NCBI RefSeq assembly: GCF_000426485.1
Contig: NZ_AUFL01000010.1
Coordinates: 152,925 to 216,924, forward strand
Reading direction: 5' to 3'
Source: Indolivaga capnocytophagoides DSM 22835
Lineage (GTDB): Bacteria > Bacteroidota > Bacteroidia > Bacteroidales > Dysgonomonadaceae
Length of the DNA stretch: 64,000 nucleotides
This document shows positions 8,637 through 54,408 of the stretch, piece after piece. The notes beneath the pieces were generated by a model. That model was not told the origin of the DNA. It saw only the letters and a program-made list of their open reading frames with translations, and did not search any database. Position 1 is the stretch's first letter; every line of letters begins with the position of its first letter. The translations under genes were made by a program, and so were the position numbers.

Positions 8637-9190
8637 AGAAAATATATATAAAAGGTATCCCTAATGAAGAATTCAGGGATAATGAATATCTCGAAAAATA
8701 CGCAGAAGAACTCCGTGCAGGAGGTGTGCCGGTAGTAGTTGGTGCTTTGGATGATCTGATCAACTGGGGGCGTTCCAATTCTGTCTGGCCTTTGGCTTTT
8801 GCCACAAGCTGTTGCGGTATTGAATTTATGGCAGCGGCAGGAGCTCACTTCGATATTGCCCGTTTCGGAATGGAGGTAACACGTAATAGTCCGCGGCAAG
8901 CAGATACAATGGTTGTAGCAGGTACTATCGTTCATAAAATGGCTCCATTGTTGAAACGTGTCTATGATCAGATGGCTGAGCCTAAATATGTAGTCGCAAT
9001 GGGTAGTTGTGCTATTTCAGGTGGTCCTTTTGTAGACTCATATCACGTGGTTAAGGGTGTTGACGAAATAATTCCTGTGGATGTTTATATTCCGGGTTGT
9101 CCGCCCCGCCCCGAATCTCTCTTCTATGGTCTTATGCAATTGCAGAGAAAGATTAAGCTCGAAAGATTCGTATTTAAAGTGAAAAAGTAA
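8627..9190 (+). CDS. nuoB: NADH-quinone oxidoreductase subunit B
   Basis: This peripheral-arm subunit carries the terminal [4Fe-4S] cluster N2 next to the quinone site. Cluster ligands are visible in SCCGIEFMA, GSCAISGGPF and IPGCPPRPE. At 187 residues the length is normal. The stop TAA is immediately followed by, and shares bases with, a copy of the GGTC-NNN-GACC intergenic repeat. Confidence 0.97.
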   Translation: MEVKKIYIKGIPNEEFRDNEYLEKYAEELRAGGVPVVVGALDDLINWGRSNSVWPLAFATSCCGIEFMAAAGAHFDIARFGMEVTRNSPRQADTMVVAGTIVHKMAPLLKRVYDQMAEPKYVVAMGSCAISGGPFVDSYHVVKGVDEIIPVDVYIPGCPPRPESLFYGLMQLQRKIKLERFVFKVKK

Positions 9191-9204
9191 GGTCTAAGGC
9201 CTGA
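9189..9204 (+). repeat. Degenerate copy of the GGTC-NNN-GACC intergenic repeat
   Basis: AAGGTCTAAGGCCT begins inside the TAA stop of nuoB. The right arm is GGCC rather than GACC. No clear second stem or tail follows. Confidence 0.5.
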
Positions 9205-9299
9205 TGCAGTTTTGGTATATGTAAATCCAAGGCTGATTGTTCTGATAGTGGAATTTACTATTATATAAAAGCTCGAAGACCGATTCATATAAGCGATCA

Positions 9300-10931
9300 A
9301 TGGAAAATATCAAAAATATAATCTTAAAAGCAGTACCTGAGGCAATTATAGCTGATGATAAGCAGATCTTGACAGTAACTGTAGATAAAGACAGTTTACA
9401 CCATTTGGCCAAGACGCTTCGTTATAATGCAGAGTTGCCTTTCGATTATTTAGCAATGCTTACAGGTGTAGACCGGGGCGAGACTCTTGGTGTAAATTAC
9501 CTGCTTACTTCATCTAAAGACCTTACCAAGGAAGTAGTATTGGAAACTAGTACTGCGGATAGAGAAAAACCTCTTTTATATTCAGTTACAGATTTATGGG
9601 AAACAGCTCATTATAATGAGCGTGAAGTGTATGCTATGTTGGGTATCCGTTTTATAAACAATCCTGATATGCGTCGTTTCTTCCTGAATTCTGATTGGAG
9701 AGGATTTCCTTTGAGAAAAGATTATGATGCTGACCCTGTGTTGAATCCTGTTGATGTGGAAAGTAAGGAGATTGTTGATATTGCTCCCCGCATTGTGGAA
9801 ACTCCTCAAGGTTTAAAAGAAGAAACTTCTGAAATATTCGAAAAAGATGACTATGTGATCAACGTAGGACCGCAGCACCCGTCAACACACGGAGTAATGC
9901 ATTTCCGTATGGCGTTGGATGGAGAGATAGTCAAAAAAATAGATGTCCATAGTGGTTATATCCATCGTGGAATAGAAAAACTAAGCGAAAAACTTACATA
10001 TCCACAAATACTACACTTTACAGACCGTCTTGATTATTTATCGGCAAGTATCAACCGTCATACATTATGTATGTGTGTAGAGAAAGCCGCTCAAATAGAA
10101 ATCCCGGAAAGAGCCCAATATATACGTACCATCATGGACGAACTTAACCGTATCGATTCGCACTTGATCGGTTGGGGAAGTATGTGTATGGACTTAGGGG
10201 CTACTACTGCATTTATATATGGTATACGTGAACGTGAACATATATTGCAGATTTTCGAAAAGACCTCGGGAGGTCGCCTTATTGTCAATTATAATGTGGT
10301 TGGTGGTGTGATGTTCGATATTTATAACGACTTCCAGAAAGATGTGAAGGCATTCGTTATATATATGAGAGAAAAACTAGACGAATATCATCGCTTGTTT
10401 ACAGGTAATGTAATCGCTATTGGTCGTATGGAAGGATTAGGTATCCTTTCGAAAGAGGATGCTATTACGTACGGTGTTACAGGGCCGGCCGGTCGAGGAT
10501 CGGGCTTCTCTTGTGATGTGCGGAAATATCATCCTTACGCCCTTTACGATAAAGTCGAGTTTAAGGAAATTATCCGTTCCGAATGCGATGCGTATGCTCG
10601 TTACAAAAATCGTTTGGACGAGATAGAAGAGTCTTTGCATATTATCGAACAGTTGATCGATAATATACCGGACGGAGATTTCCAGGCAAAAACTAAGGCG
10701 ATAATAAAACTTCCCGAAGGCGAATTCTATCAAAGAGCAGAAGCCGGACGTGGTGAATTTGGAGTCTTTATCGAAAGCCGTGGAGATAAATTTCCTTATC
10801 GTTTGAAATTCAGATCGCCGTCTATGGCTGCCGTTTCGGTAATGCCTCTCATCTGTAAAGGTGAGAAATTGTCTGACTTTATCAGTATCGGTGGTTCTAT
10901 GGACTATGTGATTCCCGATATCGACCGTTAA
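9300..10931 (+). CDS. nuoCD: NADH-quinone oxidoreductase fused subunit C/D
   Basis: A 543-residue fusion of the 30-kDa (NuoC, about residues 1-170) and 49-kDa (NuoD, about 185-543) subunits. The NuoC part has ERE(V/A)YAMLGIRFINNPDMRR; the NuoD part has NVGPQHPSTHGVMHF, with the quinone-site His, and ends in the typical DFISIGGSMDYVIPDIDR. Such fusions are known in enterobacteria and Bacteroidetes. It sits 109 bases after nuoB. Its TAA overlaps a well-kept intergenic repeat. Confidence 0.97.
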   Translation: MENIKNIILKAVPEAIIADDKQILTVTVDKDSLHHLAKTLRYNAELPFDYLAMLTGVDRGETLGVNYLLTSSKDLTKEVVLETSTADREKPLLYSVTDLWETAHYNEREVYAMLGIRFINNPDMRRFFLNSDWRGFPLRKDYDADPVLNPVDVESKEIVDIAPRIVETPQGLKEETSEIFEKDDYVINVGPQHPSTHGVMHFRMALDGEIVKKIDVHSGYIHRGIEKLSEKLTYPQILHFTDRLDYLSASINRHTLCMCVEKAAQIEIPERAQYIRTIMDELNRIDSHLIGWGSMCMDLGATTAFIYGIREREHILQIFEKTSGGRLIVNYNVVGGVMFDIYNDFQKDVKAFVIYMREKLDEYHRLFTGNVIAIGRMEGLGILSKEDAITYGVTGPAGRGSGFSCDVRKYHPYALYDKVEFKEIIRSECDAYARYKNRLDEIEESLHIIEQLIDNIPDGDFQAKTKAIIKLPEGEFYQRAEAGRGEFGVFIESRGDKFPYRLKFRSPSMAAVSVMPLICKGEKLSDFISIGGSMDYVIPDIDR

Positions 10932-11035
10932 GGTTGCAGACCTTTTTATTGCTTTGGTGAAAAATAACCAAAGATACTTGTGGCTTAAAAACAGATGTTT
11001 AAATTCTATCAGTTACTTATATTATCAATATAAAA
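10930..11035 (+). repeat. Structured intergenic repeat, nuoCD/nuoH
   Basis: Stem 1 is AAGGTT-GCA-GACCTT at 10930-10944 (one T-G wobble), stem 2 is CTTTGG 10952-10957 with CCAAAG 10968-10973 (perfect, 10-base loop), followed by an AT-rich tail up to nuoH. It begins inside the nuoCD stop codon. Confidence 0.75.
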
Positions 11036-53200: not shown

Positions 53201-53298
53201 ATATGTTTTATTTTAATTGGATAATCTGAATTGCAGGTTTACCCATGGCAAACCTTTACAAAGGTAATAAATAGGATTCATTTTTTAAAGAGCATTAG

Positions 53299-54303
53299 TC
53301 ACTTATCACCATAAATTATATTCATTATACTATCTCCTATAAAAGGACGGAAATGAGATTCTTCGTAGTAGTTATATTTGTTTTTGGTGATATTATTAGA
53401 TCCCGTAAAGTTATAAATCCGATCGGATCCGAATACTTTCTTTATAGTTTCCATATCTATCCGATGGAATATAGCCTGTGAATATAACGGATTGAGAATA
53501 ATCCGATAGTCGGTATGATGATTATCCAGGATTTCTTTAATTTGCCGCATATATTTAGTCGCCTTATCATCTATGATAGGGTAAGGAGGCTCTCCGGTTT
53601 CGGTTACACTATAAAAATAGACCTGACTATAATATCCGGAGAAGTCTTTTTCTATTTTCGAATCCAGATCTTCTCGTCTTGGTTCGTTAGTTATCGTATC
53701 GTAAGTAATTCCGCCGTCTTTAGAATAGTGGCGGTTGACATACTCATTATTGATTCCGAATACTTCTTTTGCGTATAATGAGTAAAGAAAAGAAGGATTC
53801 AAATATGTCTCAAAGGTAACTTCATGAAATTCAATCCAACTGATGTCTGATAATGCTGGATGCTCGATGTATAGATATTTCGGTTGATTTTCTTGCTTTC
53901 GGAATGTATAGTCTGTATCAAAACAGAGAAGAGCATTTTTGATATCAATACCCTTTTCATCCAGAAACTTTAATTTATGATACATACCGGATATTTTTTC
54001 TCCGTATGCGTCAAACGAGTATACATTGGCATCTGCTTTCAGATGGCTCTTCCATGAGCTGACATGAAACCCGAAGATGCGTGAACTGCCGAATATAAAT
54101 GAATTGTACTGTTGTTTACGGTAATTACGTAAGAAAACTTCAGTGGATATGTATCCTCTGTTTATATTGAAAGAGTGTGAATAATCATCGTATGATTTTA
54201 CTACTTTGAAAGGGTCGTATATGATATATCCTGCCAACAATCCAATAAAGATGATTACAGGTAAAATCAGAAATTGCAGAACCTTTCGTAAAAATAATTT
54301 CAT
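53299..54303 (-). CDS. Membrane-anchored protein linked to MBOAT acyltransferase (SGNH/AlgX-like)
   Basis: A 334-residue protein from the ATG at 54303. A TTG at 54312 is an alternative. One N-terminal transmembrane helix (VLQFLILPVIIFIGLLAGYIIY) is followed by a periplasmic domain with NSFIFGSSRIFGFHV, which resembles the SGNH/DltD GSSR block, and later HYRIILNPLYSQAIFHR. It follows an MBOAT gene on the same strand, 113 bases on. The known pattern is an MBOAT plus an SGNH-like protein that together acylate a surface polysaccharide or teichoic-acid-like polymer. Confidence 0.75.
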   Translation of the reverse strand: MKLFLRKVLQFLILPVIIFIGLLAGYIIYDPFKVVKSYDDYSHSFNINRGYISTEVFLRNYRKQQYNSFIFGSSRIFGFHVSSWKSHLKADANVYSFDAYGEKISGMYHKLKFLDEKGIDIKNALLCFDTDYTFRKQENQPKYLYIEHPALSDISWIEFHEVTFETYLNPSFLYSLYAKEVFGINNEYVNRHYSKDGGITYDTITNEPRREDLDSKIEKDFSGYYSQVYFYSVTETGEPPYPIIDDKATKYMRQIKEILDNHHTDYRIILNPLYSQAIFHRIDMETIKKVFGSDRIYNFTGSNNITKNKYNYYEESHFRPFIGDSIMNIIYGDK

Positions 54304-54312
54304 TTTAAACAA

Positions 54313-54408
54313 CTAAGTAAATAAAAGTATTTAATGATATGTTTTTAGTTTATAACAGGCTTTGGCTGTCCTACTTATCAAAGCATTAAATAGGTTTGTG
54401 ACCGTAAA
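54313..54408 (-). repeat. Full-length intergenic repeat between the MBOAT gene and its partner
   Basis: Read on the minus strand: ACGGTC-ACA-AACCTATTTAATG, CTTTGA (12 bases) CCAAAG, TGTTATAAACTAAAAACATATC and ATTAAATACTTTTATTTACTTAG. Closely matches the 35869 copy along its whole length. Confidence 0.75.

What the first reader, a model, noticed from the sequence alone, without database searches (positions are those of the whole stretch)
9189..54408. Family of short structured intergenic repeats with a GGTC-NNN-GACC core
About 20 copies lie between genes. The arms of stem 1 are conserved while the three loop bases vary (GCA, TCA, TTA, TGA, GAA, ACA), which argues for a structure or dyad rather than a fixed word. 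Better-kept copies (19489, 27491, 34184, 35869, 54313) share, in order: the palindrome, TATTTATTAC, CTTTGG...CCAAAG, TTATAAA-T-AAA, and ATATCATTAATACTT. I know of no named family with this layout, but that is memory, not a search. It could be a mobile REP/MITE-like element, an mRNA stability or attenuation element, or a protein-binding site.
Basis: partly seen in the sequence, partly recalled or inferred. Interest (0 to 1): 0.85.

Follow-up and report, generated by a model that had tools for sequence, protein, structure and literature searches.

The report
Hairpin-tipped mobile repeats at gene edges
Hundreds of copies of a roughly 90-letter DNA element with a tiny dyad (predicted to form a hairpin) at one end lie between the genes of this bacterium, likely a Dysgonomonas, and of its relatives, often exactly behind a gene's stop codon or just before a gene's start; it likely spreads as a small mobile element, and its hairpin end may have been put to use by the host.

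Summary
The window holds 17 profile matches to an element of about 90 bp, and the genome has 527 exact GGTCNNNGACC dyads against 9 for the reversed pattern. The unit reads (T)TAA | GGTC-NCA-GACC-TATTTATTAC ... ATCATTAAATACTTTCTGTTACTTA |.

It behaves like a mobile element. Copies are missing at orthologous places in other Dysgonomonas, and one metagenome genome (G041) carries two identical copies on different contigs. No terminal inverted repeat is visible and no target-site duplication is supported; insertion lies 3' of TAA, best TTAA. A distant genome (G040, 1,380 dyads) has the same left end and a similar right tip on another body.

Copies dock at gene edges. 62 of 362 start exactly at a stop codon (3.4% expected) and 114 of 362 lie 13-33 nt before a start (7.0% expected).

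In orthologous copies the dyad arms are kept more often than controls, while the centre base changes fast. RNA structure of the body is not established.

No Y1 (REP/IS200) transposase was found in this genome; the enzyme is unknown. It is REP/MITE-like in behaviour but fails both membership tests.

The parts
10928..11022 (+). full-length element, dyad GGTTGCAGACC at 10932 directly after the stop codon ending at 10931
   Evidence: profile match E 2e-15; G004 has a shorter spacer that keeps TTACTTA, probably a remnant
15761..15860 (+). full-length element, degenerate dyad GGTCTCAGGCC at 15767
   Evidence: E 2.3e-10; empty in G004
25417..25514 (-). full-length element with degenerate dyad (GCTCTTAGACC)
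   Evidence: E 1.1e-11
27490..27577 (+). near full-length element, dyad GGTCGAAGACC at 27493
   Evidence: E 3.8e-11; spacer estimated at ~27 nt in G004 against 111 here
34177..34259 (-). near full-length element, dyad at 34244-34254
   Evidence: E 7.8e-13
35861..35956 (-). full-length element, dyad GGTTTCAGACC at 35941-35951
   Evidence: E 2.6e-17
37764..37845 (+). element, dyad GGTCTTAGACC at 37768
   Evidence: E 1.1e-5
45304..45399 (+). full-length element, dyad GGTCGCAGACC at 45307 directly after the stop codon ending at 45306
   Evidence: E 5.3e-16; spacer is 98 nt here and 11, 15, 15, 15, 18 nt in G004, G001, G005, G002, G019
48818..48915 (+). full-length element, degenerate dyad GGTACTAGACC
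   Evidence: E 3.4e-15
54311..54407 (-). full-length element, best-scoring copy of the window, dyad at 54393-54403
   Evidence: E 2.2e-19; absent in G004
19494..19564 (-). 3'-truncated element, dyad at 19550-19560
   Evidence: E 1.3e-7
20424..20477 (-). left half of an element, dyad at 20463-20473; dyad and part of the body shared with G005 and G002
   Evidence: E 3.1e-7
38964..39042 (+). element body and right end without dyad
   Evidence: model positions 18-96, E 1.3e-10
12157..12186 (+). left end only, dyad GGTCGCAGACC at 12162
   Evidence: E 7.4e-4
48943..48970 (-). left end only, dyad at 48955-48965, 20 nt before the ATG at 48986
   Evidence: E 2.2e-4
37872..37912 (-). left end only, dyad at 37898-37908, 18 nt before the ATG at 37927
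   Evidence: E 0.009
48563..48611 (-). left end with dyad at 48599-48609, inside a predicted ORF (46987-48639) whose start may be misplaced
   Evidence: E 0.0075
9191..9281 (.). degenerate pair of inverted dyads (GGTCTAAGGCC after the stop; GCTCGAAGACC before the next gene); G001, G002, G005 carry an inverted element at the right-hand place
13761..13771 (+). degenerate dyad GGTCATAGATC; G001 and G005 have GGTCGTTGACC and G002 GGTCGCTGACC at this place

Best explanation
This is a family of about 90-bp dispersed DNA elements with a defined left end (TTAA | GGTC-NNN-GACC-TATTT, predicted to form a small hairpin) and a defined right tip (...ACTTA |), absent from orthologous sites in relatives, that likely spread as a non-autonomous mobile element through a strand-transfer enzyme not yet identified that would recognise the left-end hairpin and join it 3' of a TAA/TTAA target without copying the target. 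Shown: copy number, ends, empty sites, no visible TIR, no TSD above chance, target bias, docking at stop codons and before start codons, one left end on two different bodies, arms kept more often than controls and centre base changing fast in orthologous copies. Inferred: that transposition (rather than another duplication route) spreads it, that the hairpin is the recognition feature, and that a single-strand route of the IS200/REP kind is used. Also inferred: that dyads left in UTR positions are kept by selection, because they form a small hairpin or bind a protein there.
For: Abundance and specificity: 527 against 9; the permutation control. Orthologous comparison by flanking pairs of 230 full-length copies: 64 empty, 41 filled, 9 intermediate by spacing. 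Within the window, 45307-45404 is empty in the five relatives with a clear junction. Two identical 91-bp copies, one at 97% and one at 94% in G041, the identical ones on different contigs with different flanks (loci L047, L065). Ends: left 4-mers TTAA 173, ATAA 52, CTAA 29 of 362; right flank after TTAC is TTAA 104, TTAT 64, TTAG 13 of 287, and the two flanks match no more than shuffled (57 against 55.7). Left module shared with G040 on other bodies: 38 exact dyads in 178.5 kb, loops TTC 34 and TTT 4, while the Dysgonomonas-type body gives 0 matches there (40 of 70 first-look candidates scored). Location: 62 of 362 exactly at a stop codon against 3.4% expected, 114 of 362 at 13-33 nt before a start against 7.0%. 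Maintenance: arms identical in 24 of 57 aligned orthologous dyads against 24.7% of 592 control 11-mers of the same G+C (p 0.007); centre changed in 11 of these 24 against 7% (p 6e-6). Complementary double arm changes 14 against 5.1 shuffled, 1 of 2000.
Against: No enzyme found: Y1_Tnp is absent from G000, G003, G005, G041, G042, G044; G001, G002, G004 have one weak match each and G040 four, but the three G040 matches on fetched contigs lie 0.7 to 6.6 kb from the nearest dyad. IS110 does not track the repeat, and the Y2 search was uninformative because its controls did not ring. No autonomous copy: in 1.43 Mb of four Dysgonomonas genomes eight pairs of ends lie 301-4000 bp apart, and none of the ORFs between them looks like a transposase; in 178.5 kb of G040 five pairs lie far apart and their ORFs were not examined. 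Copies in this genome are old: median pairwise identity of 133 full-length copies (61 own) is 66%. Compensatory arm changes are not significant in this genome alone (5 against 3.4, 473 of 2000), and the pooled excess rests largely on a G002 subfamily. Orthologous dyads also decay: 44 of 256 outer-arm cells differ, and dyads are gapped more often than controls (19 of 57 against 8-11%). Several 'empty' sites are partial remnants or deletions. The stem is only 4 bp.
Confidence: 0.68

Rival explanations
1. It is a REP family moved by a REP-associated Y1 transposase (RAYT, Bacteroidetes subclass 2.6) that this genome has lost.
For: Same style: extragenic, high copy, short hairpin tagged at one end, no TSD. 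A subclass-2.6-like protein (NHLH, YIHQNP, 179 aa) is present in G002, locus L028 (subclass features in PMC6006769). G040 has four Y1_Tnp matches.
Against: The G002 and G019 genes are flanked by other hairpins (GGATTTGCAATCC; CGGGTTGCAAACCCG), not by this element. Three of the four G040 matches were checked and lie 0.7-6.6 kb from the nearest dyad. No Y1 gene in G000 (527 dyads), G005 (265), G041 or G042. The tag is neither GTAG nor CGTC, and the unit is about 90 bp.
Confidence: 0.13
2. It is a host regulatory site (RNA hairpin in UTRs or a dyad for a homodimeric protein) that arose and is kept by selection, not a mobile element.
For: Arms kept and loop free to change in orthologs; strong gene-edge placement; dyads without body are more often 13-33 nt before a start (52 of 71) than full-length ones (48 of 115); wobble changes lean to the transcribed strand, 31 of 49, p 0.04 by binomial and 0.06 by Fisher.
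Against: About 90 bp of shared body and sharp ends; empty sites; identical copies in unrelated places. Copies sit in all four gene contexts. This can be a later use of a mobile element, not its origin.
Confidence: 0.1
3. It is a classical MITE, an internally deleted DDE transposon.
For: Short, non-coding, multi-copy, dispersed, lineage-specific insertions.
Against: No TIR by inspection: the left end GGTCTCAGACCTATTT and the reverse complement of the right end TAAGTAACAGAAAGT do not match (consensus). No TSD above chance.
Confidence: 0.05

Closest known systems
REP sequences / RAYT system (GTAG and CGTC super-families, PMC3733652)
   Same: Extragenic, high copy, hairpin at one end next to a short unpaired tag, variable loop; in that paper GTAG termini often supply the stop codon of the neighbouring gene, much as TAA sits at this element's left end.
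   Different: Tag is TTAA, stem 4 bp (5-13 bp for GTAG, 8-9 bp for CGTC), unit about 90 bp with a defined far end, no RAYT partner. CGTC repeats, found in Bacteroidetes among others, also lack a transposase but have 8-9 bp stems and a CGTC tag.
IS200/IS605-type single-strand transposition (mechanism largely recalled; family background in passages of PMC6006769)
   Same: No TIR, no TSD, insertion 3' of a fixed short target, subterminal hairpin, similar sequences at left target and right tip.
   Different: No Y1 transposase found in this genome and no IS-sized relative found.
MITEs of Bacteroidales, e.g. BrickBuilt of Porphyromonas gingivalis (PMC5771137 passages; PMC4596501 listing)
   Same: Short non-coding mobile repeats between genes.
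   Different: MITEs have inverted termini (definition recalled); this family shows none. No sequence comparison was made.

Membership tests
REP (GTAG/CGTC) | unpaired GTAG or CGTC tag at one end | tested here: not met
   Left flank is TTAA/NTAA
REP (GTAG/CGTC) | 20-40 bp unit with stem of 5-13 bp | tested here: not met
   About 90 bp, 4-bp stem, 3-nt loop; ranges from PMC3733652
REP (GTAG/CGTC) | cognate RAYT gene flanked by the repeat | tested here: not met
   No Y1_Tnp in G000 and G005; the G002 and G019 Y1 genes are flanked by other hairpins; three of four G040 matches have no dyad within 0.7 kb
REP (GTAG/CGTC) | high copy number, mostly extragenic | tested here: met
   527 dyads; 77 intergenic against 5 genic in the sample
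MITE | terminal inverted repeats | tested here: not met
   By inspection of the end consensus
MITE | target-site duplication | tested here: not met
   57 of 287 flank matches against 55.7 shuffled
MITE | lineage-specific insertion of a short non-coding unit | tested here: met
IS200/IS605-derived element | Y1 HUH transposase in the genome | tested here: not met
   (G000 is a draft, 98.65% complete)
IS200/IS605-derived element | no TIR, no TSD, fixed target 5' of the left end | tested here: met
IS200/IS605-derived element | excision through single-stranded circles | not testable with these tools
   needs a bench assay
Rfam families | covariance model match at gathering score | tested here: not met
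   0 matches in the window
structured RNA | covarying helices in the body | tested here: inconclusive
   RNAalifold empty; one GC-to-UA swap shared by 13 of 40 copies, probably one event; covariation score reached by 7 of 500 shuffles, within the tool's stated null range

The most novel reading that the evidence does not exclude
A new class of hairpin-ended mobile element whose insertion machinery homes on gene edges, docking exactly behind TAA stop codons and just upstream of ribosome-binding regions, and whose 11-bp hairpin has been domesticated in Dysgonomonas and other Bacteroidales as a mark at the ends of hundreds of messages, with a loop-centre base that mutates faster than its surroundings because the hairpin really extrudes.
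Probability: 0.22. Interest if true: 0.82.

Novelty: new variant of a known kind. Interest (0 to 1): 0.55.

Why it matters
If right, several Bacteroidales genomes carry an abundant mobile repeat that fits neither REPs nor MITEs, with a missing enzyme to be found and a natural record of insertions at exact gene boundaries. The orthologous copies give a ready test of whether mobile hairpins become working parts of messages.

Tried and rejected
RNA structure of the body: RNAalifold on 133 and on 40 copies gave none. The best mutual-information pairs were mostly not complementary and look like subfamily linkage. Within-copy against cross-copy pairing gave z 2.75 for the CTTTGG/CCAAAG zone (1 of 200) and 2.19 for the dyad arms (10 of 200), less elsewhere. 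Named-structure counting was inconclusive. The 40 copies were taken from 92 eligible full-length own copies, high-scoring ones of usual length. I built no covariance model; a profile HMM was used for copy finding.

Target-site duplication: rejected (312 copies, 25 dropped because no right tip was recognised, counted; one of four flank positions reached 56 of 2000 shuffles). Several empty sites look like a TTAA duplication, but the flanks vary independently, so the right TTA appears to belong to the element.

Enzyme search: Y1, Y2 (uninformative), IS110 - no partner. Paired ends around a gene: eight pairs, ORFs between them not transposase-like by eye; G040 pairs not examined.

Plasmids and phages: no match to the 95-nt query. 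Viral contigs: four loci match the left module; L294 and L297 extend into the body.

RNA against DNA dyad by wobble: borderline. An early reading of 58 directed comparisons (arms 0.938, centre 0.43) was replaced by the controlled count; the wider set of 64 unordered pairs shows weaker arm conservation (outer arms 17% different, centre 50%).

Literature: exact words of the repeat hit three unrelated papers; Dysgonomonas with repetitive and palindrom gave 0 papers; the listings showed no title or abstract describing this repeat. That is absence from these searches only.
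Full report
WHAT IS THERE. Its genus is Dysgonomonas by inference: same-genus genomes G002 and G004 have contigs of exactly the lengths of named D. alginatilytica and D. macrotermitis records (613176, 258233 and 181888 bp). The dyad GGTCNNNGACC occurs 527 times, its reversed control 9 times. In 464 kb, 77 of 82 exact dyads lie between genes; the other permutations of the arm give 0-2 between genes.

ANATOMY. Iterated profile search gave, from dyad to tip, about 90 bp: TTAA | GGTCTCAGACC TATTTATTACTTTGGTAAGTATAACAACAATAGATTGTTATAATTTAAAAATATATCATTAAATACTTTCTGTTACTTA | (alignment of 40 own copies). 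Two subfamilies differ in the middle. The window has 17 matches at E < 0.01. In 1.26 Mb of this genome I oriented 217 noncoding copies, which extrapolates to roughly 750 per genome (inference). Full-length copies are old: median pairwise identity 66% over 133 copies, 61 own and 72 from other genomes.

IT MOVED. At window 45307-45404 the spacer is 98 nt here but 11-18 nt in the five relatives with a clear junction; the more distant G040 shows no dyad in its locus either. Over 230 full-length copies in stretches of five genomes, flank pairs found elsewhere were empty 64 times, filled 41, intermediate 9 by spacing (these count copy-relative pairs, not independent events, and some empty ones are remnants). 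Some sites are shared by several species with altered dyads (window 9191, 13761, 20430), so many insertions are old. G041, a metagenome genome (titled Prevotella sp. TD116_bin30), has two identical copies plus one at 97% and one at 94%, and two identical copies there have different flanks, so movement there looks recent.

ENDS. No TIR is visible and no TSD is supported: left and right 4-mers agree in 57 of 287 copies, 55.7 expected after shuffling (25 of 312 copies dropped for lack of a recognisable right tip). The left flank is TTAA in 173 of 362 and NTAA in most of the rest. The right TTA appears to belong to the element, because the next base varies freely.

A SHARED LEFT END. G040, of another family of the order, has 1,380 dyads but no match to this body (40 of 70 candidates scored). 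In 178.5 kb its 38 copies read TTAA|GGTCTTCGACC|TATTTA or close to it, and most end like ...CTTTTGTAACAGTACTTA|: same left end, different loop (TTC), different middle, similar right tip. The left module and the tip are what the two families share, which is why I infer that they are the recognised parts.

WHERE IT SITS. Of 362 oriented noncoding copies (2.22 Mb of G000, G001, G002, G005), 62 begin exactly at a stop codon and 114 lie 13-33 nt before the start of a gene pointing away; a null using the same 4-mers in intergenic regions without copies gives 3.4% and 7.0%. In convergent gaps 16 of 26 are exactly at the stop. Gene calls are simple ATG-to-stop ORFs of at least 70 aa, not curated. Full-length copies already show the bias (38 of 100 and 48 of 115), and copies reduced to the left end show more of the start-side placement (52 of 71). 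In G040, 3 of 17 stop-side copies are exactly at a stop and 11 of 26 start-side copies lie 14-31 nt away. Targeted insertion and later retention may both act.

KEPT ARMS, FAST CENTRE. In alignments between five genomes the eight arm bases are identical in 24 of 57 aligned dyads (19 of the 57 are gapped, more than the 8-11% of controls, and count as not identical), against 24.7% of 592 control 11-mers with six G+C (Fisher p 0.007; p 0.003 against 2,456 with five). Among those 24, the centre base differs in 11, against 7% in controls (p 6e-6 and 8e-7). In the wider set of 64 unordered comparisons the centre differs in 32, outer arms in 44 of 256 cells, inner arm bases in 34 of 128, so decay is common too. 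Comparisons share branches and are not fully independent. Complementary double changes number 14 against 5.1 in shuffles (1 of 2000), but 5 against 3.4 in this genome alone. One-sided wobble changes lean to the transcribed strand, 31 of 49. A real hairpin, in DNA or RNA, is the likeliest reason; this is inference.

MECHANISM. I commit to a non-autonomous mobile element with single-strand-like integration 3' of TTAA. The ends fit IS200/IS605-type behaviour (recalled), but no Y1 enzyme was found in G000, G003, G005, G041, G042 or G044, the Y1 genes of G002 and G019 have other hairpins beside them, and three of four Y1 matches in G040 lie 0.7-6.6 kb from the nearest dyad. Either the enzyme has been lost or it belongs to another family. 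IS110 is present in G000 but was not found in G001, G005 and G041.

COMPARISON WITH WHAT IS KNOWN. REPs share the style but not the tag, length, stem or enzyme (PMC3733652: abstract, part 1 of section 4 and passages read). PMC6006769 (passages and section 25) describes a Bacteroidetes RAYT subclass with atypical structures; its figures were not seen. PMC5771137 was seen in passages only, PMC4596501 in a listing only. No Rfam family matches in the window. I therefore call it a new variant of the REP/MITE kind of short mobile repeat, not a member of either family.

Noticed in passing
window 29540-29824: Intergenic stretch with three near copies of CACCTTTGTAACCTTTTT-like words in one orientation, plus a related inverted piece (seen).
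   Followed up: no
L028 (G002:C1 near 536 kb) and L026 (G019:C68): Small Y1 proteins resembling the Bacteroidetes RAYT subclass 2.6, each next to its own hairpins (GGATTTGCAATCC; CGGGTTGCAAACCCG), unrelated to this element.
   Followed up: partly
G002:C1 near 197.1, 199.6 and 252.9 kb, G002:C3 near 88.5 kb: Four copies of the element carry a related nested inverted repeat of the kind GTAGGGG...CCCCTAC in their body: a second repeat that inserted into, or hitchhikes on, this one.
   Followed up: no
L008:1732, L008:19215, L012:17696, L013:5943: Dyads beside another repeated unit with a palindrome like CAGTAAAGTGCACTCCCTGCACTTTACTG, several copies within about 120 kb.
   Followed up: no
window 55854-55998: Strong hairpin CGTACTTTTGCACGCTGTTCGGCGTGCAAAAGTG in a gap between two minus-strand genes.
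   Followed up: no
   Followed up: partly
viral contigs L294, L297: Two viral contigs carry the left module and part of the body, suggesting transfer with phages or prophages.
   Followed up: no
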